Positions 13,984-31,443 of a stretch of 64,000 nt of DNA are shown one piece after another. A program made the position numbers and the translations under genes. Source of the stretch: Pseudofrankia sp. DC12 (GTDB lineage: Bacteria > Actinomycetota > Actinomycetes > Frankiales > Frankiaceae); NCBI RefSeq assembly GCF_000966285.1, contig NZ_KQ031391.1:306978-370977 (forward strand), written 5' to 3'. Within the stretch, counting starts at the first letter, position 1, and each line of letters begins with the position of its first letter. Under the pieces are notes generated by a model, which was not told where the DNA came from, searched no databases, and worked only from the letters and a program-made list of their open reading frames with translations.

Positions 13984-15609
13984 ATGGACGCGATCACTAC
14001 CGTTCCGGTGCCGGTCAACGAGCCGGTGCGGACGTACCCGGCCGGGAGCGCCGCGCGGGCGGCGCTGGCCGCGCGCTGCGACGAGCTGGCCGCCGGGCCC
14101 GTCGAGCTGACCGCGGCGATCGGCGGGGAGCGCAGGCCCGGCGGCGGACCGGCCGTGGACGTCGTGATGCCGCACGACCACAAGCACGTCCTCGGCACGT
14201 TCCACGCGGCCACCGAGGACGACACCCGGGCGGCGCTGGCCGCGGCACGGGCCGCGGCGCCGGGCTGGCGGGCGCTGGGCCTCGACGGCCGGGCGGCGGT
14301 GTTCCTGCGGGCGGCCGAGCTGCTGGCCGGGCCCTGGCGGGACACGTTGAACGCGGCGACCATGCTCGGGCAGAGCAAGGTCGCGCACGAGGCCGAGATC
14401 GACGCCGCCTGCGAGCTGATCGACTTCTGGCGGTTCAACGTCGCCTTCGCCCGCCAGATCCTCGCCGAACAGCCGGCCTCCTCGTCCGGTGTCTGGAACC
14501 GGACCGACTACCGGCCGCTGGAGGGCTTCGTCTACGCGATCAGCCCGTTCAACTTCACCTCGATCGCCGGGAACCTGCCGACGGCTCCCGGGCTGATGGG
14601 CAATGTCGTCCTCTGGAAGCCAGCCCCCACCCAGCAGCTCGCCGCGCATTTCCTGATGGACCTGCTCGAAGCGGCCGGGCTGCCACCTGGCGTGATCTCG
14701 ATGCTTCCGGGCGACGGCCGGGCCGTCTCAGCCGTGGCGCTGGCCGAGCCTGACCTCGCTGGCATCCATTTCACCGGCTCCACGGCGACCTTCCAGCGGC
14801 TGTGGCGCCAGGTGGGCGAGCGGATCGGGCAGTACCGCGGCTATCCGCGCCTCGTCGGCGAGACCGGCGGCAAGGACTTCGTGCTGGCGCATCCGTCGGC
14901 GGACCCGGCGGTGCTGCGCGCGGCGCTGCTGCGCGGCGCGTTCGAGTACCAGGGCCAGAAGTGCAGCGCCGCGTCCCGCGCTTATGTGGCGCGCTCGGTG
15001 TGGGACCGGGTGCGTGACGATCTCGTCGGGGCCACTGAGGCGCTGGTCGAGGGCGACGTCACGGACCCGGGGGTCTTCCTCGGCGCGCTCATCGACGCCC
15101 GCGCCTTCGCCCGGGTGACGGGGGCTCTGGAACGGGCCCGGCGGGTCGACTCGCTGGCCGTGCTGGCCGGCGGGCGGGCCGACGACAGCCGCGGCTGGTT
15201 CGTCCGCCCGACGGTTCTCGTCGGTTCGGACCCGGTGGACGAGGCCTTCACCACCGAGTACTTCGGACCGCTGCTCGCCGTCCACGTGTATGCCGACTCC
15301 GACTACGACCGGGTGGTCGCCGGCCTGGCCGAACCCACGGCGAACCGCTATGCGCTGACTGGAGCGGTCATCGCCGAGGACCGGGCCGCCGCCGGCGCGG
15401 CGGCCGAGACACTGCGGTACGCCGCCGGCAACTTCTACGTCAATGACAAGCCGACCGGCGCCGTCGTGGGCCAACAGCCGTTCGGCGGCGCCCGCGCGTC
15501 GGGCACCGACGACAAGGCCGGCTCACCGCTGAACCTGCTGCGCTGGACCGCTCCCCGCACGCTCAAGGAGAACCTGCGCCCGCCCACGGACCACCGCTAC
15601 CCGGCCTGA
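13984..15609 (+). CDS. pruA: L-glutamate gamma-semialdehyde dehydrogenase
   Basis: The 541-residue protein starts 5 bases after GGAGGTGGG. It is an aldehyde dehydrogenase of the delta-1-pyrroline-5-carboxylate type, oxidising glutamate semialdehyde to glutamate with NAD in proline and arginine breakdown. PFNFTSIAGNLPTAP, HFTGST, LVGETGGKDF with the general-base Glu, and YQGQKCSAASRAYV with catalytic C327 are diagnostic. The end (QQPFGGARASGTDDKAGS) is the substrate and oligomer loop. Proline dehydrogenase is not next to it. NAD-GDH and GabT at 32-37 kb would handle related metabolites. Confidence 0.93.
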   Translation: MDAITTVPVPVNEPVRTYPAGSAARAALAARCDELAAGPVELTAAIGGERRPGGGPAVDVVMPHDHKHVLGTFHAATEDDTRAALAAARAAAPGWRALGLDGRAAVFLRAAELLAGPWRDTLNAATMLGQSKVAHEAEIDAACELIDFWRFNVAFARQILAEQPASSSGVWNRTDYRPLEGFVYAISPFNFTSIAGNLPTAPGLMGNVVLWKPAPTQQLAAHFLMDLLEAAGLPPGVISMLPGDGRAVSAVALAEPDLAGIHFTGSTATFQRLWRQVGERIGQYRGYPRLVGETGGKDFVLAHPSADPAVLRAALLRGAFEYQGQKCSAASRAYVARSVWDRVRDDLVGATEALVEGDVTDPGVFLGALIDARAFARVTGALERARRVDSLAVLAGGRADDSRGWFVRPTVLVGSDPVDEAFTTEYFGPLLAVHVYADSDYDRVVAGLAEPTANRYALTGAVIAEDRAAAGAAAETLRYAAGNFYVNDKPTGAVVGQQPFGGARASGTDDKAGSPLNLLRWTAPRTLKENLRPPTDHRYPA

Positions 15610-15744: not shown

Positions 15745-17028
15745 GTGATGGACATTGGGTCGCACGCGACCGCCGCCTGGCGCGACGCCGCTGCCCGGTG
15801 CCCGAAGACGATGGCCCACGGCCCCTGCGCGGGTGTCGGGGCGGACGGCGCATGCGAGGTCCCCGGCTTCGGGACCTGCGCGTTCCTGGACGTCGCCGCC
15901 GTCGACTGGCCGTACGCGCGGACCCTCGGCGCCGCCGCGCCCGGCTCGGACGGGGCCGCGGCCACCAGCCAGGAGCGCCACCCGGCCGTCGCCACGTTCC
16001 TCGCCGCCGCGGGGACACGGCCGGTCGTCGTGGCCGACCTGCCCACGGCACCGCTGTCGGCGGCCAGCCTGCTGGCCAGCGCCGCGACGCTCGCCGGTGC
16101 GGCCGACGCCTGCCTGCTGGGCGACCATGGCGGCGCCCGGGTCCAGTTCCCGCCGTCCTACCGGGCCCGGCTGCTCGCCGACGCGGGCGTCCCGGCCTGG
16201 GTGGGCATCAACTGCCGGGACCGCAACCGGGTCGCGATCGAGGGCGAGATCGCCGCCTGCCTCGACGCCGGGGCGGTCGCGGTCCACTGCGTGACCGGCG
16301 ACCATCCGGCCCTCGGCCACCGCCCGGACGCGGCGGCGGTCTTCGACCTCGACAGCGTCGGCGTGGTCGCGCTGACCGCCGCGGCGGCGGCCGGCGGCGG
16401 CGGCGCGCTGTGCTCGGTGTCGCACGCCCCGGCGACGCCTCCGACGGACAGGCGACTGGCCCGGCTGCTCACCAAGATCGACGCAGGGGCGGACGTCGTG
16501 TTCGTCGACCACTGCGGCGGCCCCGGGCCGGTCGCGGACGCCGTCGGCGAGCTGCGCGCGGCCGGGTTCGGCGGGCTGGTGCTCGCCTGTGTCCCGGTCG
16601 TCACGAGCGCCGCGTCGGCGGCCGTCGTCGCCTCGTTCGCGGGCGACCGGCTGCCGGCCGGGTACCTCGACCGGATCACGGGCGGCACCGCCGCCGACTG
16701 GATGCCGCACGCGAACGGCCACGGCCCGGCCGTCCTGACGGCGGCCGAGACCGCCGAGATCGAGACGGCCGAGATCGAGACGGCCGAGATCGAGACGGCC
16801 GGGATCGCGGAGGGCACGGAGCTCGCCGAACGGATGCTGGAGATCCCCGGCGTCGACGGCGTGAACCTCTCGGGTGGCGCGCCGCCCGGCCAGGAGGTGG
16901 CGCTGGCCGCGGCCATGGCCGAGATCGCGCGCCGCGTGCTGAGCGCGTCCGGGCCGCCCGCCCGCCGCCGGTCCCGCGGGCCGGCCGCGCGGGTGGGGAC
17001 TGCTGTACCGGGAGCATCAGGCGCATGA
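15745..17028 (+). CDS. MetF-like methylenetetrahydrofolate reductase-family protein with N-terminal Cys domain
   Basis: Start is GTG 15745 or the next codon ATG; 427 residues. Residues about 19-50 (CPKTMAHGPCAGV, GACEV, TCAFLD) look like the Cys-rich MTHFR C-terminal domain (PF12225), here at the front. A TIM-barrel part follows, with GDH, GINCRDRNR and AVHCVTGDHP, resembling MetF in its folate/flavin-binding region. Such proteins can move one-carbon groups to or from tetrahydrofolate in demethylation pathways; that role is inferred. Residues about 337-352 hold an Ala-Glu-Ile-Glu-Thr repeat. Its stop overlaps a 52-codon ORF, leading into the amidohydrolase and ABC transporter. Confidence 0.7.
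   Translation: MMDIGSHATAAWRDAAARCPKTMAHGPCAGVGADGACEVPGFGTCAFLDVAAVDWPYARTLGAAAPGSDGAAATSQERHPAVATFLAAAGTRPVVVADLPTAPLSAASLLASAATLAGAADACLLGDHGGARVQFPPSYRARLLADAGVPAWVGINCRDRNRVAIEGEIAACLDAGAVAVHCVTGDHPALGHRPDAAAVFDLDSVGVVALTAAAAAGGGGALCSVSHAPATPPTDRRLARLLTKIDAGADVVFVDHCGGPGPVADAVGELRAAGFGGLVLACVPVVTSAASAAVVASFAGDRLPAGYLDRITGGTAADWMPHANGHGPAVLTAAETAEIETAEIETAEIETAGIAEGTELAERMLEIPGVDGVNLSGGAPPGQEVALAAAMAEIARRVLSASGPPARRRSRGPAARVGTAVPGASGA
16753..16812 (+). repeat. In-frame 15-bp tandem repeat in the MetF-like gene
   Basis: Three identical copies of GCCGAGATCGAGACG (16753-16797) and a degenerate fourth encode AEIET three times. The unit is a multiple of three, so changes in copy number keep the frame. 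It falls in a probable linker between the barrel core and the last helices. Confidence 0.9.
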
Positions 17029-17183
17029 GTGAATGGGCACGAACCGCCTACGGACGGACGCAGCGGCGCACCGGCGCGGCCAGCGGGACCGGCCGGCCCG
17101 GGACCAGCCCAGGCGGGACAGGCCAGACGGGAGACACGGTGGTCGGACGGCGAGCCGGTACCGGCGGACGGAAGGTCGCATGA
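17025..17183 (+). CDS. Candidate 52-residue coupled ORF
   Basis: The ATG overlaps the stop of the MetF-like gene as ATGA, and its own stop overlaps the ATG of the amidohydrolase as ATGA. GGGAG lies about 9 bases upstream. The product is basic and rich in Gly, Thr and Arg (MSEWARTAYGRTQRRTG at the start) with no recognisable domain. Third-position GC is lower than in the neighbours, weakening the coding case. It may be a translated spacer that couples the two enzymes, or a true small protein. Confidence 0.4.
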   Translation: MSEWARTAYGRTQRRTGAASGTGRPGTSPGGTGQTGDTVVGRRAGTGGRKVA

Positions 17184-18457
17184 GCTGGTTGCGGTCGGCG
17201 CGGACGGCGATGGGCGAGACCGTCGACGTCGAGCTGGTGGACGGGGTCATCGCGCAGGTCATGGCGGCGAGCCCCGCCGGCTCGGCCACCGCGGCCGGGG
17301 CGGGCCCCGGGGACGTCGACCTGTCCGGCCACGTCCTGATGGCGTCGTTCGTCGAGCCGCACGCGCACCTGGACAAGGCGCTGACCGCGTCGCTGGTCCC
17401 GAACCTGACCGGGGACCTGGCCGGCGCGGTCGCCGCGATGGAAACGCTGCGACCGGCGACGGCGCGGGCGGACATCATCGCCCGCGCCGAGGCGGCGCTG
17501 CGGATCCACCTCGCGTTCGGCACAACCCACATCCGGACCCACGTCAACGTGCTGACCGGGGTGGGCCTCGAAGGGCTCGACGCGCTGATCGAGGTCAGGG
17601 AGCGCTGGCGCGGGGTCGTCGACCTGCAGCTCGTCGCGCTCGTCAACGACACGGCCGGCCCGCTGCTGCGCGCGGCGCTGCGCGAGGGCGCGGACGTCGC
17701 CGGCGGCTGCCCGCACATGGAGGACGACCCCGACCGGGCCGTCGCCGCGTGCCTGGACGCGGCCGGCGAGGCCGGGGTGCCGATCGACCTGCACACCGAC
17801 GAGACCCTCAGCCCGGACGCGCTCAGTCTGGTGACGATGGCCGACCTGGTCAGCCGGACCGGCTTCCCTCACGCTGTGACGGCGAGCCACTGCGTGAGCC
17901 TGTCGATGCAGCCGCTCGCCCGCCAGGAGGAGATCGCCGAGCAGGTCGCCGCCGCCGGCATCGCCGTGGTCGCGCTGCCGCAGACCAACCTGTTCCTGCA
18001 GGGCCGCGGCCACCCGGTCGCGACGCCGCGCGGGCTGACCGCCGTCGCCGCGCTGCTGCGCGCCGGGGCGACCGTCGCCGCCGGCGGCGACAACCTGCGC
18101 GACCCGTTCCACCTCGTCGGCCGGGGCGACGCCCTTGAGGTCGCGGCGCTGATGGTCATCGCCGGCCACCTCGACCCGGCCCGCGCGCTGCACACGGTCA
18201 CCGAGGCGCCCCGCGCGGCGCTCGGCCTGCCGACCGTCGACCTGTCCCCCGGCGCGCCCGCCGACCTCGTCGCCATCCCGGGCGCGGACGCGCTCGACGC
18301 CCTGGGCGCCGCCGGCGTCGCCCGCACCGTCTGGCGGGACGGGCGGATCGTCGCCCACACCGTCGTGCACTCCGAGCTCGCCGCACCGCCGGCGGCCCTG
18401 GGCGGGCCGGGGCCGGCCCGTCCGCTGGCGAGCTCCTCCTTCGGACCGAAGGCCTAA
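17180..18457 (+). CDS. Cytosine-deaminase-type amidohydrolase
   Basis: The 425-residue protein starts at MSWLRSARTAMG, just after GGAAGG. It is a metal-dependent amidohydrolase of the CodA/TrzA kind: EPHAHLDKAL gives the HxH metal ligands, DLHTDETL the third His and catalytic Glu, ASHC a further His, and GGDNLRDPF the catalytic Asp. Family members deaminate or hydrolyse rings such as cytosine, isoguanine or triazines; the substrate cannot be told. The C-terminal SPGAPADLVAIPG and VWRDGRIV belong to the composite beta-sandwich. ATGA overlap upstream and a 4-base gap to the ABC ATPase gene show one operon for uptake and hydrolysis of the same compound. Confidence 0.85.
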   Translation: MSWLRSARTAMGETVDVELVDGVIAQVMAASPAGSATAAGAGPGDVDLSGHVLMASFVEPHAHLDKALTASLVPNLTGDLAGAVAAMETLRPATARADIIARAEAALRIHLAFGTTHIRTHVNVLTGVGLEGLDALIEVRERWRGVVDLQLVALVNDTAGPLLRAALREGADVAGGCPHMEDDPDRAVAACLDAAGEAGVPIDLHTDETLSPDALSLVTMADLVSRTGFPHAVTASHCVSLSMQPLARQEEIAEQVAAAGIAVVALPQTNLFLQGRGHPVATPRGLTAVAALLRAGATVAAGGDNLRDPFHLVGRGDALEVAALMVIAGHLDPARALHTVTEAPRAALGLPTVDLSPGAPADLVAIPGADALDALGAAGVARTVWRDGRIVAHTVVHSELAAPPAALGGPGPARPLASSSFGPKA

Positions 18458-18461
18458 GCCG

Positions 18462-19220
18462 ATGACGATGACAACCGAACCCCCGCCCGCGACCACCGCC
18501 GCGCTGCGCTTCGCCGGGGTCAGCAAGAGGTTCAAGGACGGGACGGTCGCGCTCGCGAACGCCGACCTGATGGTCGCGCCCGGCGAGTTCGTCTCCGTCG
18601 TCGGCCCGTCCGGCTGCGGCAAGTCCACCCTGCTGCGGCTGGCCAGCGGCCTGGACGACGTGACCGGCGGCGAGGTCGACGTCCACTCGGAGTCCGTCGG
18701 CTACGTGTTCCAGGACGCCACCCTGCTGCCCTGGCGCAGCGTGCGCGACAACGTCCGGCTGCTCGCCGAGCTGGAGGGCCTGCCCAAGGCCGAGCGCGAG
18801 CAGCGGGTGGCCGCGGCGATCGAGCTGGTCGGGCTGGCCGGCTTCGAGAAGCACCTGCCGCACGAGCTGTCCGGCGGCATGCGGATGCGCACGTCGCTGG
18901 CCCGGTCGATGGTGCTCGCCCCGGACGTCTTCCTGTTCGACGAGCCGTTCGGTGCGCTCGACGAGATCACCCGGGAACGGCTCAACGACGAGCTGCTGCG
19001 GATGTTCACCCAGCAGCGGTTCGCGGCGCTGTTCATCACCCACTCGGTGGCCGAGGCGGTGTTCATGTCGAGCCGGGTGCTGGTGATGAGCCCGCGGCCA
19101 GGCCGGATCAAGGCCGAGGTCAGCGTCCCGTTCCCCTACCCGCGCGTCCCGGAGATCCGGTACAGCGCCGAGTTCGCCGCGCTCTGCGGCGAGGTCTCCC
19201 GCCATCTCAGGGACGAGTGA
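18462..19220 (+). CDS. ABC transporter ATP-binding protein, NitT/TauT family
   Basis: A 252-residue ATPase energising import. VGPSGCGKST is Walker A, VFQDATLLPWRS the Q-loop typical of nitrate/sulfonate/taurine-type importers, LSGGMRMRTSLARSM the signature, VFLFDEPFGALDE Walker B and FITHSVAEAVFMS the switch His. The first 14 residues are a short unconserved leader. It sits 4 bases after the amidohydrolase and overlaps the permease gene start (GTGA), so the ATPase, permease and lipoprotein receptor form one importer. Confidence 0.95.
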   Translation: MTMTTEPPPATTAALRFAGVSKRFKDGTVALANADLMVAPGEFVSVVGPSGCGKSTLLRLASGLDDVTGGEVDVHSESVGYVFQDATLLPWRSVRDNVRLLAELEGLPKAEREQRVAAAIELVGLAGFEKHLPHELSGGMRMRTSLARSMVLAPDVFLFDEPFGALDEITRERLNDELLRMFTQQRFAALFITHSVAEAVFMSSRVLVMSPRPGRIKAEVSVPFPYPRVPEIRYSAEFAALCGEVSRHLRDE

Positions 19221-20158
19221 GGATCATGTCGCTTGACGCCGTGACGCCGGCGGGCTCCGCGCCCGGCGGCACGCTGCCGGTCGTGACCGCCGCGCCGGCA
19301 GTTCCCGACGGCCTGCTGGTGCCGCCCGCGGCCGAGTTCGTGGTGACACAAGGCCAGGCGGGGGCCTTCCGGCTGCGAGGGGCGGTCGGGTTCGTCAACA
19401 AGTTCCTGCTGCCGCTCTCCGTGTTCGCGGTGTTCATCGGCGGCTGGTACCTGGTGACCTGGCTGGCGCTGACGCCGCAGCAGCGCTTCATGCTGCCGTT
19501 CCCGCACGAGGTCGTCAAGGTCGGCTTCCTGGACTGGTCGAGCCTCAAGGACATCCTGGACGCCCTTGAGTACACCTGCATCGTCACGTTCCTGGGCCTG
19601 GCCATCTCGATCGTGCTCGGCGTGCTCGCGGCGATCCTCATGAACCAGGCGAAGTGGCTGGAGAACGGCCTCTACCCGTGGGCCGTCGTCCTGCAGACGG
19701 TGCCGATCCTCGCGCTGACCCCGGTACTCAGCTTCTTCTTCGGGTTCGCGCTGACCAGCCGGACGATCGTCTGTGTCATCATCGCCTTCTTCCCAATCGT
19801 GTCGAACACCTTGTTCGGCCTGCAGTCCGTCGACCGAGGCATGCACGAGCTCTTCTCGCTGCACCGGACCGGCCGCCTCACCCGGCTGTGGAAACTTCAG
19901 CTGCCCGCGGCGATGCCGGCCATGTTCGCCGGGTTCCGCGTCGCCGCCGGGCTCTCGGTGATCGGCGCGATCGTCGGGGAGTTCTTCTTCAAGCAGGGCA
20001 ATGCCGGGCTCGGCACCAACCTGTCGGTGTACGAATCGCGGCTGGAAGGCGAGCGGCTGTGGGCGACGACCATCGTCGCCAGCCTGCTCGGCATCGCCGT
20101 GTTCGTCTTCTTCGGCTGGTTGTCGCGCCGCGTCGTCGGCCGCTGGTACCAGCCCTAG
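19217..20158 (+). CDS. ABC transporter permease, NitT/TauT family
   Basis: The start is GTG 19217, overlapping the ATPase stop, or ATG 19226. The 313-residue protein has about 50 leading cytoplasmic residues and then six likely membrane spans, beginning with FLLPLSVFAVFIGGWYLVTW. The EAA-type cytoplasmic loop that docks on the ATPase is seen around LFSLHRTGRLTRLWKLQLPAAMPAMFAGFRVAAGLSVIGAIVGEFF. This layout is that of TauC/SsuC-like permeases. The receptor gene follows after a 209-base structured gap. Confidence 0.93.
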   Translation: MRIMSLDAVTPAGSAPGGTLPVVTAAPAVPDGLLVPPAAEFVVTQGQAGAFRLRGAVGFVNKFLLPLSVFAVFIGGWYLVTWLALTPQQRFMLPFPHEVVKVGFLDWSSLKDILDALEYTCIVTFLGLAISIVLGVLAAILMNQAKWLENGLYPWAVVLQTVPILALTPVLSFFFGFALTSRTIVCVIIAFFPIVSNTLFGLQSVDRGMHELFSLHRTGRLTRLWKLQLPAAMPAMFAGFRVAAGLSVIGAIVGEFFFKQGNAGLGTNLSVYESRLEGERLWATTIVASLLGIAVFVFFGWLSRRVVGRWYQP

Positions 20159-20367
20159 CGCGGCTGACCCTCGGCTCGGGAGGAACGGTGGGGGCCGCGC
20201 CTCTCGTCGCCCGGTTTCGCGGCACCGGTGCCGCGACGGGCGGACCATTTCCCGGCGCACGAGGTTCGCGCCGCGAAAACCCGCAACACCCGCTCCACCG
20301 AAGTACAGCTCCACGTCCATCAACGCCATCCCAGGCCGCAGCGCCTGAGGACGCAGGGGGAGACTCG
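20159..20367 (+). promoter_or_regulatory. Structured gap between permease and receptor genes
   Basis: It contains an 18-bp perfect palindrome, CGCGGCACCGGTGCCGCG (20218-20235). A wider imperfect inverted repeat pairs GGTTTCGCGGC with GCCGCGAAAACC about 50 bases on. No gene is seen. The gap may hold an operator, or an RNA structure that lets the receptor gene be expressed above the membrane parts. Confidence 0.4.
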
Positions 20368-21597
20368 TTGACCGTCTCATCTAGGTCCATTAGCGGGATC
20401 GCGCGCCTGGGCCGCGGCCGGCTCGTCGCCGCCACCGCGGCTGCCGCCACCGTCGCCCTGGTCGCCGCCGCCTGTGGCGGCAGCACCACCGGCGGCACGG
20501 GGGGCACGCCGGCGACGTCGGCCGGCGGCGCCGCGGTGCCGGCCCAGTACGACCTGAAGGCAGCCGGCTGCCCGAGCACGATCGTGCTGCAGACCGACTG
20601 GAACCCGGAGTCGGAGCACGGCGGCCAGTACCAGCTGCTCGGCCCGAACCCGTCGATCGACACCAAGAAGAAGTCCGTCACGGGTGAGCTCGTCGCCCAC
20701 GGCGGCGTCGACACCGGGGTGAAGCTGCAGATCCGCGCCGGCGGCCCGGCGATCGGTTTCCAGACCGTCACCTCGCAGCTCTACGCCGACGACAGCATCA
20801 CCCTCGGCTATGTCTCCACCGACGAGCAGATCCAGCTGTCGAAGACGCAGCCGACCGTCGCGCTGCTGGCCGGGCTCGAGAAGAGCCCGCAGATGATCCA
20901 GTGGGACCCGGCCACGCACCCGGACTTCACCACGATCGCCGACATCGGCAAGACGGACACCAAGGTCCTGTACTTCCAGGGCGCCGCCTACATGGACTAC
21001 CTGACCGGCAAGGGCATCCTGAAGAAGAGCCAGATCGACGGCTCCTACGACGGGACCCCGACGAACTTCGTCGCCTCCGGCGGCAAGTACGCCGTCCAGG
21101 GCTTCGCGACCTCCGAGCCGTACACCTGGTCGCACGAGGTCCGGTCCTGGGACAAGCCGCTGAAGTACCAGCTGATCGCCGACACGGGCTTCAACTTCTA
21201 CCAGCAGGCGATCGGGGTGCGGGCCGACAAGGAGGCCGCGCTCAAGCCGTGCCTGACGAAGCTGATCCCGATCATGCAGCAGGCGATCGTGGACTTCGTC
21301 GGCAGCCCCGGCGCGACGAACAAGCTGATCGTCGACCTGGTGAACAAGTACAACAACGGCTGGACCTACTCGGACGGCGTCGCGGACTACGCCGTCTCGA
21401 CGATGAAGTCCCTGGGCATCATCGGCGACGGCTCCACGCCGACCCTCGGTGACTTCGACACCACCCGGGTGCAGGGGCTGATCGGCATTCTGGCCCCGAT
21501 CTACGACAGCGAGGGCAAGCCGACCAAGACGGGCCTCGCGCCGTCCGACCTGGTCGACAACTCGTTCCTCGACACGAAGATCGGCCTGACCTCCTAG
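20368..21597 (+). CDS. ABC transporter substrate-binding lipoprotein
   Basis: The probable start is TTG 20368, following GGGGGAG; 409 residues. A signal peptide with arginines (ARLGRGRLVAATAAAATVALVAAACGGS) ends in a lipobox, so the mature protein is lipid-anchored outside the membrane. The rest resembles NMT1/SsuA-like periplasmic receptors: TIVLQTDWNPESEHGGQY near the start and LGYVSTDEQIQL later. Receptors with a TDW motif in the first strand are common for pyrimidine-like or amine-like ligands, but the ligand here is not known. It completes the importer encoded directly upstream. Confidence 0.85.
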   Translation: MTVSSRSISGIARLGRGRLVAATAAAATVALVAAACGGSTTGGTGGTPATSAGGAAVPAQYDLKAAGCPSTIVLQTDWNPESEHGGQYQLLGPNPSIDTKKKSVTGELVAHGGVDTGVKLQIRAGGPAIGFQTVTSQLYADDSITLGYVSTDEQIQLSKTQPTVALLAGLEKSPQMIQWDPATHPDFTTIADIGKTDTKVLYFQGAAYMDYLTGKGILKKSQIDGSYDGTPTNFVASGGKYAVQGFATSEPYTWSHEVRSWDKPLKYQLIADTGFNFYQQAIGVRADKEAALKPCLTKLIPIMQQAIVDFVGSPGATNKLIVDLVNKYNNGWTYSDGVADYAVSTMKSLGIIGDGSTPTLGDFDTTRVQGLIGILAPIYDSEGKPTKTGLAPSDLVDNSFLDTKIGLTS

Positions 21598-21605
21598 GGC
21601 TTGCG

Positions 21606-21662
21606 TTTCTCCAGGAGAAAGGCTCGGGCCCGGTGGCCGCCCTGCCAGGCGGCCACCGGGCC
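21606..21662 (+). terminator. Palindrome and long hairpin between receptor and FAD-oxidase genes
   Basis: A perfect odd palindrome TTTCTCCAGGAGAAA (21606-21620) is followed by a hairpin with a 15-bp perfect stem (GGCCCGGTGGCCGCC with GGCGGCCACCGGGCC, 21627-21662) and a 6-base loop. No T run follows. It may weaken transcription into the next gene or protect the receptor mRNA. Confidence 0.6.
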
Positions 21663-21683
21663 TGTATCGCTGGAAGGAAGCCC

Positions 21684-23048
21684 ATGGCGGAACCCACGGC
21701 CCGCCCCCGGTTCGAACAGGCACGCCTGCCCAAGGCCACGCCGGTCGATCCGGAGGCGCTCAACAGCCTCGACGACGAGCTGAGCCGGATCCTCGGCGCG
21801 GGCGCCGTCGCCCGGGACGACGCCACGCGGCTGACCGCGTCGGCCGACTGGGCGCACATGAGCCCGGTGCTCCAGCCGATGCTGCCCGGCGGCGTCGCGG
21901 ACCTCGTCGTGCGCCCGCCGGACGCCGACGGGATCGCCGCCGCGGTTGGCGCGGCGCACCGCCACCGCGTCCCGGTCACCGTCCGCGGCCAGGGCACCGG
22001 CAACTACGGCCAGGGCATCCCGCTGTTCGGCGGCCTGGTGATCGACACGTCCCGGGCGACGAAGGTGCTCGCGGTCGAGGACGGCTGGATCACCGCCGAG
22101 GCCGGCGCGTCCTTCGTCCTGATGGAGAAGGCGGCGCTGGCCACCGGCCAGGAGCTGGCCATCATGCCCTCGACCGTCGGCTCCACGATCGGCGGCTTCA
22201 TCGCGGGCGGCGCCGGCGGCACCGGCTCGATCGCGAACGGCGCCATCTGGGACGGCTACATCCGCTCGCTGCGGGTCGTGCCCTGCACCGCCGACGCCAC
22301 CCCGGTCGACGTCGGCTACCCGGACAACATCGCGCAGTCACACGCCTACGGGGTCAGCGGCGTGATCTCGACCGCCACCGTCGCCCTGCGCCCGGCGCGG
22401 AGCTGGACCGCGCTGTTCACCTCGTTCCCGGAGCTGGACGGCGCCGTCGCCGCCGGCCTGGAGCTGTTCGACCTGGAGCCGACGCCCCGGCTGCTGTCCC
22501 TGGACGAGGCGGGCGTCGTCGCGACCTACCGCCCGGCCGACCCGGCGATGCCCGCCGACCGGCTGTCCGTCCGCGGGATCGTCACCGTGGACAGCGTCGA
22601 CGCGGCGACGGCGATCGTCGAGCGCCACGGCGGCCGGGTCGAGGCGGTGCGGCCGAAGGGGCCGGCGCTGGTGACGTCGCTGTCCTACAACCACACCACC
22701 TACCGGGTGCGCAAGGCCCGCCCCGAGCTCACCCACCTGCAGTGCTCGGGCCCCGGGCTGACCGCGCGCCGGTCCGAGGTCGCCGAGATCGCCCCCGAGT
22801 CGCTGCTGCACCTGGAGGGCTTCTACCAGCCGTCCACCGGCGGCCGGGACTGGGCGTCGATGCTGTTCCTGCGCTTCGACGACGTCGACACCCTCTACGA
22901 CCGGATGACGCGGCTCGCCGACGTCGAGGTCTACGTCAACGACCCGCACACCTGGGTCCTGCACTACAACCTCGACCTCATCCGCGCGGCGGCGGCACGC
23001 TTCGACCCCGACGGCCTGCTCAACCCCGGCAAGCTCCCGGCCGCCTGA
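21684..23048 (+). CDS. FAD-binding oxidase/dehydrogenase, PCMH/GlcD type
   Basis: The ATG follows GGAAGGA and gives 454 residues. The N-terminal FAD domain shows VRPPDADGIAAAVGAAHRHRVPVTVRGQGTGNYGQ and PSTVGSTIGGFIAGGAGGTGS, with VSGVISTATVALRPA later; RFDPDGLLNPGKLPAA is the usual C-terminal end of this family. Members oxidise hydroxyacids, alcohols or amines with flavin, using oxygen or another acceptor. As last gene of the cluster it probably oxidises the imported compound or its hydrolysis product; together with a MetF-like protein this would fit oxidative demethylation, which is inference. Confidence 0.85.
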   Translation: MAEPTARPRFEQARLPKATPVDPEALNSLDDELSRILGAGAVARDDATRLTASADWAHMSPVLQPMLPGGVADLVVRPPDADGIAAAVGAAHRHRVPVTVRGQGTGNYGQGIPLFGGLVIDTSRATKVLAVEDGWITAEAGASFVLMEKAALATGQELAIMPSTVGSTIGGFIAGGAGGTGSIANGAIWDGYIRSLRVVPCTADATPVDVGYPDNIAQSHAYGVSGVISTATVALRPARSWTALFTSFPELDGAVAAGLELFDLEPTPRLLSLDEAGVVATYRPADPAMPADRLSVRGIVTVDSVDAATAIVERHGGRVEAVRPKGPALVTSLSYNHTTYRVRKARPELTHLQCSGPGLTARRSEVAEIAPESLLHLEGFYQPSTGGRDWASMLFLRFDDVDTLYDRMTRLADVEVYVNDPHTWVLHYNLDLIRAAAARFDPDGLLNPGKLPAA

Positions 23049-23131: not shown

Positions 23132-24433
23132 ATGCTTGCGCGACGTGAGTTCCTGCGAGGGGCGGTGCTGGGCGCGGCCGGCCTCGGGGTCGGCACGCTG
23201 GCCACCGGGTGCGGATCGAACGGCTCCCCCAGCGGGCCGGTGGCGACGGCCGGCGACCAGAGCCGCGCGGCCGCGGACGGCGCGGCGCTGCCCGGGGCCG
23301 CCGCGGCCGTCACCGCCTTCAGCGCCGATCTGTACCGGAGGCTCTCAGCCGGCGCCGCCGGCAACCTGATCTGCTCGCCATACTCGGCGGCGATGGCGCT
23401 GGCCATGGCGCGCGCCGGCGCCGCCGGGCGCACGGCCACCGAGCTGGACACCGTGCTGCACGCTCCCACGGCCGGCGGCGGCGATCCGCTAGCGCCCGGG
23501 CTGAACGCGCTGACCCTGGCACTGGGCGCTCGCGCCGGCGCACGCAAGGACATCCACGGCGTGAAGGCGACGATCAGCCTCGACGTGGCGAACGCGCTCT
23601 GGGGCCAGGACGGCGAGCAGTGGGAGGCGCCGTTCCTGGCCAGCCTGGCCCGGTACTACGGCGCGGGCATGCGGCTCGTCGACTACCGCGCCGACTCGGC
23701 CGGCGCCGCGAAGGCGATCAACGCCTGGACCTCCCAGCAGACCAAGGGCCGCATTCCCAAGATCGTCGATGGCCTGGACGCCTCCACCCGCCTGGTACTC
23801 ACCAGCGCGCTGTACCTGCGCGCCCCCTGGAACTCCCCGTTCGGCGACGCACAGCCCGCGCCGTTCACCCGCCTCGACGGCTCGGTCGTCCAGGCACAGC
23901 TGATGAGCGTCGACGCCTACGACGCGGGCTACGCGACCGGGCCTGACTGGCAGGCGGTCGACGTCCCCTATGCGGGCGGTGAGCTGGCGATGGCGGTGAT
24001 CCTGCCCGATCAGGGCCGGTTCGATGCTGTCCGTTCCGCCCTCGACGGGACCGCGCTGCGCAGCCTGCTGACCGGTCTGCACGTGACCGGCGTCCAGCTC
24101 GACCTGCCGAAGTGGACGACGCGCACCCGCGTCCGCCTCGACGACGCGCTGGTCGCACTGGGCATGCCGACCGCGTTCGGCGACAGCGCCGACTTCAGCG
24201 GCATGACCACGACCGAACGGCTTTCCATCGCCGCGGTCCCGCAGGAGGCGTTCGTCGCCGTCGACGAGCACGGCACCGAGGCCGCGGCCGCCACCGCCGT
24301 CGTCATGGGCATCTCCGCGATCGTCGCGCCAACCCGCAAGGTAACCGTCAACCGGCCTTACCTCTACGTCATCCACGACCGCCCCATCGGCACCCCGCTC
24401 TTCCTCGGCCAGGTCACCGACCCGACCGCGTAG
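23132..24433 (+). CDS. Serpin (serine protease inhibitor), Tat-exported lipoprotein
   Basis: The 433-residue protein starts with ARREFLRGAVLGAAGLGVGT, a twin-arginine signal, and ends it with a lipobox (TGCGS, C27). The body is a complete serpin: NLICSPYSAAMALAMARAGAAG, SALYLRAPWNSPF, DVPYAGGELAMAVILP. The reactive-centre hinge is DEHGTEAAAAT, the small-residue pattern of inhibitory serpins. Counting from G381 as P15 puts the cleaved bond at S395-A396. The C-terminal VNRPYLYVIHDRPIGTPLFLGQVTDP is the usual strand 5B region. It likely traps a subtilisin- or elastase-like protease at the cell surface; the target is unknown. It stands alone and is convergent with the GH130 operon. Confidence 0.92.
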   Translation: MLARREFLRGAVLGAAGLGVGTLATGCGSNGSPSGPVATAGDQSRAAADGAALPGAAAAVTAFSADLYRRLSAGAAGNLICSPYSAAMALAMARAGAAGRTATELDTVLHAPTAGGGDPLAPGLNALTLALGARAGARKDIHGVKATISLDVANALWGQDGEQWEAPFLASLARYYGAGMRLVDYRADSAGAAKAINAWTSQQTKGRIPKIVDGLDASTRLVLTSALYLRAPWNSPFGDAQPAPFTRLDGSVVQAQLMSVDAYDAGYATGPDWQAVDVPYAGGELAMAVILPDQGRFDAVRSALDGTALRSLLTGLHVTGVQLDLPKWTTRTRVRLDDALVALGMPTAFGDSADFSGMTTTERLSIAAVPQEAFVAVDEHGTEAAAATAVVMGISAIVAPTRKVTVNRPYLYVIHDRPIGTPLFLGQVTDPTA

Positions 24434-24468: not shown

Positions 24469-25968
24469 TCACCCGGAGGTCATTCGCGCGAGGACGCTCG
24501 CTACCGGGACGCTGGCCAGGCCCACCCGGACGTCGTCGATGCCGTAGGGCAGCCACAGCAGGCCGTCGTGGACGAGGCCGCCGCAGGAGTAGACGACGTT
24601 GGGGACGTAGCCGTCCCGCTCCGCCGGAGCCGGGCACAGCAGCGGCTCGGGCAGCGCGCCCAACACCGTCGTCGGGTTCGCGAGGTCGAGCAGGATCGCC
24701 CCGATGCTGTACGTCCGCATCGGCCCGACCCCGTGGGTGAGGACGAGCCAGCCCTCGGGGGTCTCGATGGGCGAGCCGCAGTTGCCGACCTGCAGGAGCT
24801 CGAACGCCGACCGCGGCGCGTGGACAGGGGCCGGCGGCCCCCAGGCATGGCCGTCCCCGGAGATGGTGATGCTGGTCGTCTCGCCGTCGCACCGGCACAG
24901 CGCCGTGTGGCAACCGGCGACGAGCCGAGGGAACAGGGCCATGCCCTTGTTGCGCGCCGCCGGGCCCGTGACCGGGGAGGAGGTGAAGACCCTCAGGTCG
25001 GGACTGGTCAGTCGCCGCGGAAGGATGCGCTCGCCGTCGTAGGCGGTGTACGTCGCGCGGTAGTCGACCGTTCCGTCGGGCGCTGTGAAGCGCACGAAGC
25101 GGGCGTCCTCCATGCCGCTGCTCTCGACCGTGACGGCGGGCCACAGTACCCGCTGCGCCAGGGCGCTGTCGGCGGGGAACTCGACCCGGTGCAACAGGCC
25201 GGCCGCCGTCCGGACCCGCGCCATGATCCCGGCCGCCTGCAGGCGTCGGAGCAGGTCGGGCGGCACCTGAGCGAACGCGCGCTCGATGTCGCTCTCGTCC
25301 CCGGCCGGCTGGCCGTCAAGACCGTCGAGCACGGCGCTGGTCACCTCGTCGTCGAGCCCGTGCTCGACGAGCACGGCCCGCAGCTGGCCAGGTTCCCAGT
25401 CGACCGGTACCGCGACGCCGACGGTCAGCGGGCCGGCCCGCGGCTCCAGTCGCACCGTGGGACCGGGCCCGACCACACAGGCCGCGAAGCCGATCGAGGA
25501 CAGGTGGCCTTCACCGATCCCGCGCAGGCTCAGCGCCACCCGCAGTGCTCCGGGGGCGAGCCCCGACTGGTCAGGATGCGCCACCGCCGAGGGGTTGGTC
25601 ACCGCGGCGCCCTCCACCGCGTACTCGGCGGTGAAACACGCGCCGAGCAGCAGCAGACGGGCCGGCGACAGCGTGGCGGGCGCCCGCAGCCGGGAAGCCA
25701 CCGCGGCGGCGTGCCGGGTCAGGAGCCCCTGGTAGTCCCGGTGACGCGGCGTGAACGTCACCAGCAGACCCTCGACGAGGCCCACGACCTCCGGCTCCGG
25801 CAGCGCGAGCACCCGGGCGACGATGCCGGCGGCCCGGGAGCCGGACTCGCCGGCCTCCTCCCCGGGCAGGAACAGCCGCGCGATGACCCGGCCCGGGTCC
25901 GCGGCCAGCGTCACGGGATGTCGCGTGACCTCGACCGGCGGGCTCGTCGCCCGGGCCAAGCTGCTCAC
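24469..25968 (-). CDS. GH130-family glycoside phosphorylase/hydrolase
   Basis: A 499-residue protein with a five-bladed propeller signature at residues about 260-480: QVGNCGSPIETPEGWLVLTHGVGP, YSIGAILLDLANP and GYVPNVVYSCGGLVHDGLLWLPYGIDD. GH130 enzymes act on beta-mannosidic bonds, often by phosphorolysis. The N-terminal about 200 residues are an extra domain seen in actinobacterial members. Its start overlaps the stop of the preceding gene (ATGA), so it is the last of a coupled three-gene unit. Residues 22-198 are duplicated exactly at 1-531. No signal peptide, so cytoplasmic. Confidence 0.88.
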   Translation of the reverse strand: MSSLARATSPPVEVTRHPVTLAADPGRVIARLFLPGEEAGESGSRAAGIVARVLALPEPEVVGLVEGLLVTFTPRHRDYQGLLTRHAAAVASRLRAPATLSPARLLLLGACFTAEYAVEGAAVTNPSAVAHPDQSGLAPGALRVALSLRGIGEGHLSSIGFAACVVGPGPTVRLEPRAGPLTVGVAVPVDWEPGQLRAVLVEHGLDDEVTSAVLDGLDGQPAGDESDIERAFAQVPPDLLRRLQAAGIMARVRTAAGLLHRVEFPADSALAQRVLWPAVTVESSGMEDARFVRFTAPDGTVDYRATYTAYDGERILPRRLTSPDLRVFTSSPVTGPAARNKGMALFPRLVAGCHTALCRCDGETTSITISGDGHAWGPPAPVHAPRSAFELLQVGNCGSPIETPEGWLVLTHGVGPMRTYSIGAILLDLANPTTVLGALPEPLLCPAPAERDGYVPNVVYSCGGLVHDGLLWLPYGIDDVRVGLASVPVASVLARMTSG

Positions 25969-28327: not shown

Positions 28328-28452
28328 CCTTCCGAGCGTCGCCGGCATCGGGCCGCCGGCAGGCACAAGAGCATCGAGCTCGGCCCGAAAACGCCGAGGA
28401 ATTCCGGGTCAGAGATCATGAACAAGTGGCGTACCCTACGCCCGGGAAAATG

Positions 28453-28867: not shown

Positions 28868-30481
28868 TCAGTGGCGGCCGAGGATGGTCCGGGCGGCGTT
28901 GCGGCCGGAGGCGCCCCAGACGCCGGCGCCGGGGAAGGTGGCGCCGCCGGTGAGGTAGAGGCCGGCTACCGGGGTCTTGTAGCGGGAGAGCTCGCGGCGG
29001 CGGCCGAGCAGGGCCGACATGACGCCGTCGGGGAAGCTCGGGACGTAGCCGCGGCGCAGGTAGAACTCGCGTTCGTAGTCGGGCGGGGTCATCGCGCGCC
29101 AGTCGCGCACCGACCTCAGCAGCTCCGGGCCGTTCTCGCAGATCGAGGCGTACTGCTCCAGCCAGCCCCAGGGCAGCGCGCGGTCGCCCCAGCCGCCTTC
29201 GAGCGCCCACGGGGTCCAGAGGATCTCCTGGCTCAGCACGTGCGCGCCGGGGCCGGGCCTCATCGTCTCGTCCAGCACTGACGGGATGTTCAGGAAGAAC
29301 ATCGGCCGCTGCGCGATCAGGCCCCGTTTCAGGTCGGCGGACGCCTCGATCTGCTGCCGCGGGGTGGGGCTGACGATCGTCGTCGGAACGTGGCGCAGCG
29401 CCGCGGGCAGCACGTCCTCGGGCAGGGCGGCGACGGCGCGCGGCGTCGGCAGCGCGGTGACGACCGCGTCGAGCTTCGACTCGTAGCCGTCCTCGGCCGG
29501 CGCGGCGGCCCAGCGCCGGCGCAGCCGGGCGGCGGCGTGCTCGCCGGCGAGCCAGTCGACCAGCAGGGTCCGCGGGTCGGTGGCGTTGACGACAGTGTGC
29601 GCGGTGACCCGCCGGCCGTCGGCGAGGCGCACGCCGTGAGCCCGTCCGCCGCTGGCGTCGAGGCCGGTCACCCGCGCGCCGGTGACGACCCGACCGCCAT
29701 GGGCCCGCACGTACCGTTCGAGGGCGGCGGGAACCGCGCCGCTGCCGCCGACCGGCCGGCCGACGCCGACGAGGTGGCGGATCGCGAGGCCCAGCGCGCC
29801 TAGGCCGGTGCCCGGCGCATCCGGGCCCAGGCCCCAGACCGCGGGGCCGACCGTGTGCGTCGCCGCGATCACCCAGGAGGGCAGGCCGAACGACGTCAGC
29901 ACGTCGACGAGGCTGCGGCGCGGCCAGTCCAGCAGCACGTTGGCGCCGCGAAGCCGCTGCCGCGCGACGACGGTGGCGACGATCGACGGCGTGGTCGGCC
30001 GGCCGCCCTGCACGGCCAGCACGAGCTTCGCCGCGGGCAGCGCGACGTCGAGGTAGCGCCGGTAGGCGTCGGCCGCGGCCGGGGCGACGCGGGCGAGGCC
30101 GTCGACGGTCCGCTCGATGGAACGCCACTGGATGAAGACGGGCTCGTCGGCCCAGCCGACGGCGATGAGCATCGGGTCGACGTCGAGGTAGCGCAGGCCG
30201 TGGGCGGCGAGGTCGAGCTCCTCGACGATGCCGCTCGCCCGGATCATCGTGTGGTCGCAGTTGCAGATGTTGACCCGGGCGCCGATCGCGTCGACGGTCG
30301 ACGCGCACCCGCCGGCCTGCCCGCGGGCCTCCAGGACGACGACCGAGCGCCCGGCCCGGGCCAGGTAGGCCGCGCAGGCCAGCCCGTTGTGCCCGCCGCC
30401 GATGACGACGGCGTCCGCCCTGGGCGGCAGCGCGTCAGGGACCGGGGCGCGCACGCCCGCGGCCGCGACGTCGGCCGTCAC
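28868..30481 (-). CDS. Phytoene-dehydrogenase-like FAD oxidoreductase
   Basis: The GTG start overlaps the stop of the creatininase-family gene (GTGA); 537 residues. ADAVVIGGGHNGLACAAYLARAGRSVVVLEARGQAGG is the FAD-binding motif, and GLYLTGGATFPGAGVWGASGRNAART closes the FAD site. The overall pattern is that of CrtI-like/COG1233 amine or carotenoid oxidoreductases, but no carotenoid genes are here. The large middle part is poorly conserved and sets the substrate. Coupling to the creatininase-family gene suggests the two act on one compound. The much longer open frame upstream is only the antisense or shifted reading of that gene. Confidence 0.88.
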   Translation of the reverse strand: MTADVAAAGVRAPVPDALPPRADAVVIGGGHNGLACAAYLARAGRSVVVLEARGQAGGCASTVDAIGARVNICNCDHTMIRASGIVEELDLAAHGLRYLDVDPMLIAVGWADEPVFIQWRSIERTVDGLARVAPAAADAYRRYLDVALPAAKLVLAVQGGRPTTPSIVATVVARQRLRGANVLLDWPRRSLVDVLTSFGLPSWVIAATHTVGPAVWGLGPDAPGTGLGALGLAIRHLVGVGRPVGGSGAVPAALERYVRAHGGRVVTGARVTGLDASGGRAHGVRLADGRRVTAHTVVNATDPRTLLVDWLAGEHAAARLRRRWAAAPAEDGYESKLDAVVTALPTPRAVAALPEDVLPAALRHVPTTIVSPTPRQQIEASADLKRGLIAQRPMFFLNIPSVLDETMRPGPGAHVLSQEILWTPWALEGGWGDRALPWGWLEQYASICENGPELLRSVRDWRAMTPPDYEREFYLRRGYVPSFPDGVMSALLGRRRELSRYKTPVAGLYLTGGATFPGAGVWGASGRNAARTILGRH

Positions 30482-31251
30482 CGGCTGGTCCTGGGGTCGA
30501 ACCGGGCGATCTCGCGCAGCGACGCGGCCGCGGTCTCGACCATCGCCTCGTAGCGCTGCTTGCCGTGTTCGGCGGTGGCGCCGGTCGGGTCGCCGATCGT
30601 GCCGTCGGTGCCGAAGTCGTCGGACAGCCAGCCGAACGACACCGAACGGCCGAAACCGACCCGCTCGTACGACGCCAGGTGCTCGGGCACGGACCGGGTC
30701 CCCAGGTCGAGACGGACCAGCTCGGGGCGCAGGTGCAGCAGCACCGACGTCTCCTCGATGCCGGCGTGGATGCCCATCCCCAGCTCGGAGGCCGGCGATG
30801 TCCCGCCCTGGTCGGGTGGGACCGACGGGTGCATGACGAAGGTGCGCAGGCCGTGCGCGAGCCGCAGGTCGCGGCTGGCGACCTGCAGCAGGGCGCTGTT
30901 GCCGCCGTGGCCGTTGAGGAACACCAGCCGCTGGACCGGCGTCGTCGCCAGGCAGCGGCCCAGGTCGTCGAGCATCGCCAGCATCGTCGCCGCGGACAGC
31001 CACATCGTGCCAGCCGACCAGGCATGCTCGTTGGACTTGCTGTAGGCCAGGGCCGGCAGCAGCAGCAGGTCGATCTCGTCGCCGTAGGCCGCCACGACGT
31101 CCCGGCCGAGGCTGTCGGCCACGACCAGGTCCGTCGAGAGCGGCAGATGTGGCCCGTGCTGCTCGACGGACCCGACCGGCAGGACCGCCACCGCCCCGGG
31201 CGACAGGTCCGCGATCTCGGGAGCCCTCAGGTCGGCAAAGATCCGGGTCAT
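30478..31251 (-). CDS. Creatininase-family amidohydrolase
   Basis: Start MTRIFADLRAPEI follows GGAGG by 5 bases; 257 residues. The metal-binding family motifs are clear: PVGSVEQHGPHLPLSTDLVVAD, NGHGGNSALLQ, and MGIHAGIEETSVLLHL. Members hydrolyse cyclic or linear amides (creatinine, a riboflavin-pathway amide, or lactams), or act in peptide maturation as mycofactocin MftE does. Nothing ties this copy specifically to MftE, and the mycofactocin genes are 28 kb away. It is translationally coupled to the downstream flavoprotein. Confidence 0.88.
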   Translation of the reverse strand: MTRIFADLRAPEIADLSPGAVAVLPVGSVEQHGPHLPLSTDLVVADSLGRDVVAAYGDEIDLLLLPALAYSKSNEHAWSAGTMWLSAATMLAMLDDLGRCLATTPVQRLVFLNGHGGNSALLQVASRDLRLAHGLRTFVMHPSVPPDQGGTSPASELGMGIHAGIEETSVLLHLRPELVRLDLGTRSVPEHLASYERVGFGRSVSFGWLSDDFGTDGTIGDPTGATAEHGKQRYEAMVETAAASLREIARFDPRTSR

Positions 31252-31331
31252 GCTGCCTCCAGCCGCCGGGCGAACACGTCCGGCCCGGCGGCACCCCGCC
31301 CGGCCGTCCAGGTCTGCCCCTAGATGTTCGC

Positions 31332-31360
31332 CTGACCAACACTGCATCTGACCAACACTG
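31332..31360 (-). repeat. Two direct repeats in front of the creatininase operon
   Basis: CTGACCAACACTG occurs at 31332-31344 and again at 31348-31360, a 16-bp period, about 80-110 bases before the creatininase start. This looks like a pair of direct half-sites for a regulator. Confidence 0.5.
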
Positions 31361-31443
31361 TGGCGACCCGGCATGACAGACCCGTCAGCGCCAAATTTCC
31401 CGGCCGTGAAGTCGCGGGCCCGCCGGCGGCCGCGGCGGCCTGG

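What the first reader, a model, noticed from the sequence alone, without database searches (positions are those of the whole stretch)
15745..23048. Possible undescribed catabolic system: MetF-like protein, CodA-like amidohydrolase, ABC importer, FAD oxidase
Six genes on one strand are joined by overlaps or short gaps: MetF-like protein with a displaced Cys domain, cytosine-deaminase-type hydrolase, NitT/TauT importer with lipoprotein receptor, and a PCMH-type flavin oxidase. I know of no named pathway with this set. A ring hydrolase plus an oxidase plus a folate-type one-carbon enzyme suggests import and demethylation of an N-methylated heterocycle or amine.
Basis: inference. Interest (0 to 1): 0.7.

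Follow-up and report, generated by a model that had tools for sequence, protein, structure and literature searches.

The report
Probable pterin or folate breakdown operon
Six neighbouring genes in an actinobacterium, probably of the Frankia family, most likely import and break down pterins or folate (vitamin B9) rather than an N-methylated compound, and they include an odd relative of a folate enzyme whose job is still open.

Summary
The six-gene unit is real: MetF-like / CodA-like amidohydrolase / ABC ATPase / permease / lipoprotein receptor / PCMH flavoprotein, colinear in eight other genomes of the family. The core without MetF (amidohydrolase, NitT-type importer, flavoprotein, usually a creatininase-family gene) recurs in other Actinobacteria, Proteobacteria and Paenibacillaceae. 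The flavoprotein model's best structural match is 6v42, titled "flavin oxygenase ... involved in folate catabolism" (Z 42.3); 6v42 is about 67% identical to flavoproteins of Rhizobium/Agrobacterium clusters of this layout. In Variovorax, an amidohydrolase fitting the description of a proven pterin deaminase (PMC9513972) lies beside such a cluster in 3 of 4 genomes. Best reading: pteridine (pterin/folate) import and catabolism. The MetF-like protein has an MTHFR fold (Z 23.4) and four invariant N-terminal cysteines; it is an actinobacterial add-on, probably acting on a folate or pterin (inferred). No reaction or ligand has been shown for this locus.

The parts
15745..17028 (+). MetF-like protein: N-terminal 4-Cys DUF5981-type motif (C19, C28, C37, C45) then an MTHFR-type barrel
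   Evidence: cluster-specific group in a tree
17180..18457 (+). CodA-like metal amidohydrolase, probably of pterin deaminase type; HxH, H, E, H, D set present; HLDK and DNLRDPF where CodA has HLDT and DDVFDPW
18462..19220 (+). ABC importer ATPase, NitT/TauT-like
19217..20158 (+). ABC importer permease, overlaps the ATPase gene by 4 bp
20368..21597 (+). receptor lipoprotein of the importer (TTG start; lipobox-like VAAAC, my reading), no curated family
21684..23048 (+). FAD protein, relative of 6v42 (titled flavin oxygenase, folate catabolism)
30478..31251 (-). creatininase-family hydrolase, displaced seventh member (ORF to 31374; start placed at 31251, where the match to relatives begins)

Best explanation
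A pteridine (pterin or folate) uptake and catabolism operon, actinobacterial variant. The lipoprotein receptor and ABC importer bring in a pterin, pteroate or folate fragment (inferred). The amidohydrolase removes the 2-amino group, pterin to lumazine type (inferred from context shared with a published pterin deaminase). The FAD enzyme oxidises or oxygenates the ring (inferred from 6v42), and the creatininase-family enzyme opens the oxidised ring (inferred). The MetF-like protein, found only in some actinobacterial versions, probably binds a reduced folate or pterin as substrate and changes its redox or one-carbon state (weak inference). Shown: gene content, conservation, family and fold relations. 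Not shown: any reaction or ligand.
For: Flavoprotein: 6v42, titled a flavin oxygenase of folate catabolism, is the best fold match (Z 42.3, rmsd 2.3, 424 aligned, 31% id; next Z 31.5) and the best sequence match (E 6e-44, next 2.6e-13). 6v42 is 64-67% identical to FAD proteins of the nearest loci here, mostly Rhizobiaceae, whose clusters run creatininase, LysR, receptor, ATPase, permease, 'cytosine deaminase', FAD protein, NAD(P)H oxidoreductase. Amidohydrolase: in 3 of 4 Variovorax genomes examined a copy followed by RidA lies divergently beside reductase, FMN reductase, NMT1-type receptor, FAD protein, permease, ATPase and creatininase. In one locus (L227) it is 400 aa from one of its possible starts; the published F1 pterin deaminase is 399 aa with a conserved 'endoribonuclease' gene downstream in V. 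paradoxus (PMC9513972). The window enzyme is 34% identical to that copy, which is 34% identical to the Agrobacterium cluster enzyme; the two proven pterin deaminases are 37% identical. Linkage: amidohydrolase plus ATPase plus permease in 16 of 20 actinobacterial loci (the other four are under 15 kb) and 24 of 60 others; creatininase in 18 of 20 and 42 of 60, against 0 of 28 receptor-paralogue control loci. MetF-like: MTHFR fold Z 23.4 against 19.5 for the best barrel outside that group.
Against: 6v42's function is a depositor's title; no paper on it was found. The Arad3529 and F1 sequences were not at hand, so the deaminase link rests on length and gene order. In the fourth Variovorax genome (G666) the amidohydrolase-RidA pair stands without the cluster within 18 kb, and G663-G665 hold another amidohydrolase copy in a second FAD cluster, so substrates may differ. 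12 of 20 actinobacterial loci carry purine-type genes, which also fits a purine substrate. 36 of 60 non-actinobacterial loci lack the amidohydrolase + ABC set, 16 of them cyanobacterial. Amidohydrolase matches also occur in 5 of 28 control loci without the FAD gene. No match to the cluster reductases was found near the window unit.
Confidence: 0.65

Rival explanations
1. Purine-type substrate: the unit degrades a modified or oxidised purine taken up by the importer; the folate relation is only by fold.
For: 12 of 20 actinobacterial loci carry matches to XDH, XdhC, GuaD-like, uricase, allantoinase or PucR; Agreia locus L143 has XDH, XdhC, an 8-oxoguanine-deaminase-like protein (under cut-off), allantoinase-like and uricase genes around the cluster; PucR lies beside the Paenibacillus version.
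Against: 6v42 title; pterin deaminase context in Variovorax; pteridines are also XDH substrates (recalled), so such neighbours fit pterins too; 7 of 60 other loci have matches to those purine-type genes, though the queries were mostly actinobacterial; none was found in the window.
Confidence: 0.18
2. One reading: import and demethylation of an N-methylated heterocycle or amine, with the MetF-like protein handling the one-carbon unit on folate.
For: MTHFR-type fold; a Rieske oxygenase, a usual demethylase type (recalled), lies in the Paenibacillus version; Rieske matches in 4 of 60 non-actinobacterial loci and in L098.
Against: The core occurs without the MetF-like gene in several Actinomycetes and in all 60 non-actinobacterial loci; no match to the Paenibacillus Rieske protein in the window or in the 20 named actinobacterial loci; the residue aligned with the MTHFR folate-binding Gln (role recalled; alignment) is Asn or Asp in 20 of 20 (14 and 6).
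Confidence: 0.07
3. Creatinine- or hydantoin-type small ring substrate handled by the creatininase-family enzyme and a creatinine-deaminase-like amidohydrolase.
For: Creatininase-family gene beside the FAD gene in many loci; isochorismatase-family gene in some.
Against: The four creatininase-family proteins scanned score 82.6-102.9 bits against the curated creatininase cut-off of 235; the 6v42 relation is then unexplained.
Confidence: 0.06

Closest known systems
6v42/6v43 FAD protein, 'flavin oxygenase ... involved in folate catabolism' (PDB title), and the Rhizobium/Agrobacterium cluster type that holds its near relatives
   Same: Fold, alignment over most of the chain, GTGNYGQ stretch, partners amidohydrolase, ABC importer, creatininase
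   Different: 31% identity; the Rhizobiales clusters read have LysR, NAD(P)H oxidoreductase and RidA genes and no MetF-like gene; the window has the MetF-like gene, no reductase found nearby, creatininase 7.4 kb away
Pterin deaminase of Variovorax sp. F1 and Arad3529 (PMC9513972)
   Same: CodA-like amidohydrolase; a Variovorax copy of fitting length with a RidA neighbour sits beside the same FAD/creatininase/ABC genes and is 34% identical to the window enzyme
   Different: Activity of the window enzyme untested; F1 and Arad3529 sequences not compared directly
MetF (5,10-methylenetetrahydrofolate reductase) and DUF5981 proteins
   Same: MTHFR barrel Z 23.4; Asp at the position recalled as E. 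coli Asp120 (D186, 20 of 20)
   Different: Pfam MTHFR score under cut-off; Gln position is Asn/Asp; N-terminal 4-Cys domain; the genome has a separate canonical MetF (333 bits)
MetF-like proteins of other Actinomycetes without the FAD gene
   Same: Same architecture and 4 Cys
   Different: Other side of one branch (100/100); a SAM methyltransferase gene adjoins in the three annotated; in 13 such loci no FAD, amidohydrolase, permease or creatininase match, ABC ATPase matches in 3 and a reductase match in 1

Membership tests
6v42-type FAD enzyme family | Sequence and fold similarity over most of the chain, well above other PCMH enzymes | tested here: met
   E 6e-44 against next 2.6e-13; Z 42.3 against 31.5
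6v42-type FAD enzyme family | Encoded beside amidohydrolase, NMT1/NitT-type importer and creatininase | tested here: met
   creatininase displaced 7.4 kb in the window
6v42-type FAD enzyme family | Oxygenation of a folate breakdown product | not testable with these tools
   needs assay
Pterin deaminase (EC 3.5.4.11) | CodA-like amidohydrolase with HxH, H, E, H, D metal/catalytic set | tested here: met
Pterin deaminase (EC 3.5.4.11) | Orthology to Arad3529 or the F1 enzyme | tested here: inconclusive
   34% to a Variovorax copy that fits the F1 description; reference sequences not at hand
Pterin deaminase (EC 3.5.4.11) | Deaminates pterin or folate | not testable with these tools
   needs assay
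Cytosine deaminase CodA | CodA active-site letters HLDT and DDVFDPW (as in 1k6w) | tested here: not met
   window has HLDK and GDNLRDPF; cytosine deaminase models score under cut-off
MTHFR (MetF) | Pfam PF02219 over cut-off | tested here: not met
   18.2 bits against 24
MTHFR (MetF) | MTHFR barrel fold | tested here: met
   Z 23.4, rmsd 3.3, 277 aligned; model mean pLDDT 76.5
MTHFR (MetF) | Catalytic Glu, Asp and folate Gln (recalled as Glu28, Asp120, Gln183 in E. coli) | tested here: inconclusive
   Asp kept (D186), Gln position is Asn/Asp; the Glu region is not in the alignment
NitT/TauT ABC importer | ATPase, permease and receptor of the family | tested here: inconclusive
   ATPase and permease hits are under curated cut-offs; receptor has no family hit
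Creatininase family | Similarity to creatininase-family proteins of the clusters | tested here: met
   81-86% to four loci of the family, 60-64% to G495 and G402; creatininase-type models match under cut-off

The most novel reading that the evidence does not exclude
The cluster-specific MetF-like protein is a catabolic folate/pterin enzyme: an MTHFR barrel whose four N-terminal cysteines hold a metal or Fe-S site, fed by a ferredoxin-type reductase (adjacent gene in Klenkia and G402), which reduces, oxidises or demethylates the imported pteridine itself instead of serving methyl metabolism. This would be a folate-cofactor fold turned to breaking folates down.
Probability: 0.28. Interest if true: 0.72.

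Novelty: new variant of a known kind. Interest (0 to 1): 0.52.

Why it matters
The Discussion of PMC9513972 leaves open how bacteria break down folate beyond deamination and glutamate removal. The recurring cluster found here joins a deaminase, a 6v42-type flavin enzyme, an importer and a ring hydrolase, so the missing steps can be tested gene by gene. It also marks a MetF-fold protein as an actinobacterial addition with no assigned task.

Tried and rejected
Rejected: P5CDH (13984-15609) as part, seen only in the window's genus. Serpin as part, whole only in the two nearest relatives. CodA identity, on active-site letters. The cluster reductase was sought in the window's genome: best match 50% identity at C1:2055076, but it lies in an aromatic-type Rieske/LigB cluster, so I do not count it. 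Viral contigs: 3 stretches matched a pattern, none a relative. Plasmids with the MetF-like protein: 9 records, all under 60% identity and none covering 80%. Paper searches found no paper describing this cluster; only open-licence PMC papers are held. Of PMC9513972 I read the abstract, parts 1-2 of 5 of the text and the Discussion; all other papers were seen as search listings only. The 2013 paper on Arad3529 is not held; what I say of Arad3529 comes from PMC9513972. E. coli MTHFR residue roles, Rieske demethylation and the XDH-pterin remark are recalled. Families not listed are not excluded.

Counting notes: searches used tblastn with E 1e-10 on loci cut at 10 kb flanks or contig ends (5 of 20 and 15 of 60 are under 20 kb), so absences may be edge effects. 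One search had put L155 (Microbacterium) with the non-actinobacterial loci; one search corrects this and its numbers are used. The receptor-paralogue control (28 loci) left out L118, which has the cluster. The MetF-without-FAD control is 13 loci: regions of 10 of the 18 such class genomes, and L060-L062. Of the seven tree rows labelled as lacking the FAD gene, only three had their neighbours annotated.
Full report
The unit. Six genes lie on + from 15745 to 23048. Families: DUF5981 plus a weak MTHFR match, CodA-like amidohydrolase, ABC ATPase and permease nearest to NitT/TauT-type models but under their cut-offs, a receptor lipoprotein without a family match, and a FAD_binding_4 protein. Starts judged from orthologues are 17180 for the amidohydrolase, 20368 (TTG) for the receptor and 21684 for the FAD protein. 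The genome is one contig of 6.88 Mb; its order-level set has 35 genomes, all of one family. That the family is Frankiaceae is my reading; no tool named it.

Conservation in the family. 13 of 35 order-level genomes, the window's included, match the MetF-like protein at E <= 1e-15. The six genes are colinear in eight of the other twelve: G324, G328, G326, G323, G327, G325, G297, G296 (L047-L053, L056). G302 has the MetF match in two pieces in different frames, G307 has it truncated, and G308 ends at a contig end inside the receptor gene. G311 has only a remote MetF match on a 4.3 kb contig. Outside the thirteen, G300 keeps a 73-residue MetF remnant with the other five genes in place. P5CDH lies beside the unit only in the window's genus.

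Wider spread. With the FAD protein of G495 as query, 24 of 393 class genomes match at E <= 1e-50. With the MetF-like protein of G498, 33 of 393 match at E <= 1e-25. Fifteen have both, near each other on one contig in 14, and in G308 on two contigs that both end within the receptor gene. The core without MetF is seen in G433, G488, G495 and G496; G303 has amidohydrolase, importer and receptor on one contig with no MetF, and the FAD gene on another contig. Eighteen genomes have a MetF-like protein without the FAD gene. In the three of these annotated (G440, G541, G074) the next gene is a SAM methyltransferase. In a tree of 20 rows, the 13 cluster proteins and 7 proteins from loci without the FAD gene fall on two sides of one branch (100/100).

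Named relatives. A genome-collection scan with the FAD alignment gave 80 loci. In 20 actinobacterial loci: creatininase 18, a reductase 18, amidohydrolase 17, amidohydrolase with ATPase and permease 16, purine-type genes 12, MetF-like 6, Rieske 0. In the 60 others: ATPase 44, creatininase 42, amidohydrolase 30, amidohydrolase with ATPase and permease 24, purine-type genes 7, RidA 7, Rieske 4, MetF-like 0. Controls: of 28 receptor-paralogue loci, creatininase 0, FAD gene 0, amidohydrolase 5, ATPase 19; of 13 MetF-without-FAD loci, creatininase 0, amidohydrolase 0, ATPase 3, reductase 1. The Agreia locus carries XDH, XdhC, an 8-oxoguanine-deaminase-like gene, reductase, the core, creatininase, PNPOx-like, MetF-like, allantoinase-like and uricase genes. 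In Klenkia and G402 the reductase gene directly adjoins the MetF-like gene, which adjoins the amidohydrolase gene. Proteobacterial versions are annotated on plasmids of a Comamonadaceae bacterium, Pantoea, Agrobacterium and Rhizobium.

What the substrate is. The FAD protein was modelled (pLDDT 87.4). The best PDB match is 6v42, entitled 'Crystal structure of the flavin oxygenase with cofactor bound involved in folate catabolism' (Z 42.3). 6v42 is 64-67% identical to FAD proteins of Rhizobium, Agrobacterium and other alphaproteobacterial loci, and the Rhizobium brockwellii plasmid shows creatininase, LysR, receptor, ATPase, permease, 'cytosine deaminase', FAD protein, NAD(P)H oxidoreductase, RidA. 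Independently, PMC9513972 reports a pterin deaminase of Variovorax sp. F1 that acts on folic and pteroic acid, 399 aa; conserved endoribonuclease genes downstream of the predicted genes in V. paradoxus were used to clone it. In Variovorax genomes G663, G664 and G665 an amidohydrolase followed by RidA lies divergently beside reductase, FMN reductase, receptor, FAD protein, permease, ATPase and creatininase; in G666 the pair stands without them in the 18 kb fetched. The copy in L227 is 400 aa from one of its possible starts. The window enzyme is 34% identical to it. All 14 amidohydrolases compared, except one of two Paenibacillus copies, share HxDK where E. coli CodA has HLDT, and DN where CodA has DD.

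The seventh gene. A creatininase-family gene at 30478-31374 (-) is 86% identical to one 1.8 kb past the FAD gene in G325 and 81-82% to those of G296, G307 and G300. It is 64% identical to one in the G402 region, next to a second FAD paralogue, and 60% to the one directly after the FAD gene in G495. In the window 7.4 kb with a serpin, glycoside/glycosyl-type genes and tRNA-Asn lie between.

The MetF-like protein. hhalign against the genome's own MetF aligns 161 columns (E 1.2e-8). The profile finds MTHFR structures (E 1.3e-7). The model (pLDDT 76.5; the N-terminal Cys region is poorly predicted) matches MTHFR at Z 23.4, with non-MTHFR barrels at 19.5 and below; row 24, 3ijd (Z 20.0), is an uncharacterised protein that binds 5-methyl-THF. 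C19, C28, C37, C45, D98 and D186 are the same in 20 of 20 rows. A separate canonical MetF (333 bits) is elsewhere in the genome. Its decay in some family members and absence elsewhere make it an accessory, not the core.

Verdict. Observation confirmed. The catabolic-importer idea holds; the N-methyl idea does not. Pteridine catabolism is the best-supported reading, by inference from context and structure, with no reaction shown for this locus. On re-checking, the actinobacterial/other counts were corrected and confidence was set from 0.66 to 0.65 and the purine rival from 0.17 to 0.18, because the deaminase length match depends on the start chosen.

Noticed in passing
window 23132-24433 (+): Serpin-like protein (PF00079, E 9e-82) with an RR-containing signal and lipobox-like start, after the FAD gene; whole at this place only in the two nearest relatives.
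   Followed up: partly
window 24469-28366 (-): Beta-1,2-mannoside-phosphorylase-like (under cut-off), a 415 aa ORF without NCBIfam match and a GT4-type glycosyltransferase lie between the FAD gene and the displaced creatininase.
   Followed up: no
L093 (G300), L057 (G307), L055 (G302): MetF-like gene remnant, truncated or split over frames while the other cluster genes remain.
   Followed up: partly
L243, L247, L059: MetF-like proteins of a second group with the 4-Cys domain, each next to a SAM methyltransferase gene.
   Followed up: partly
window 20368-21597 (+) and paralogues such as L109-L132: Receptor family without a Pfam or NCBIfam model; paralogues, mostly beside ABC genes, in the same family of genomes.
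   Followed up: partly
window 29674-29766 (-): tRNA-Asn (gtt) of 93 bases between the cluster and the creatininase gene.
   Followed up: no
L214 (own genome C1:6739834-6740442): A third MTHFR-family match in the genome (35.5 bits, over cut-off) in a 602-codon open frame; not identified.
   Followed up: no
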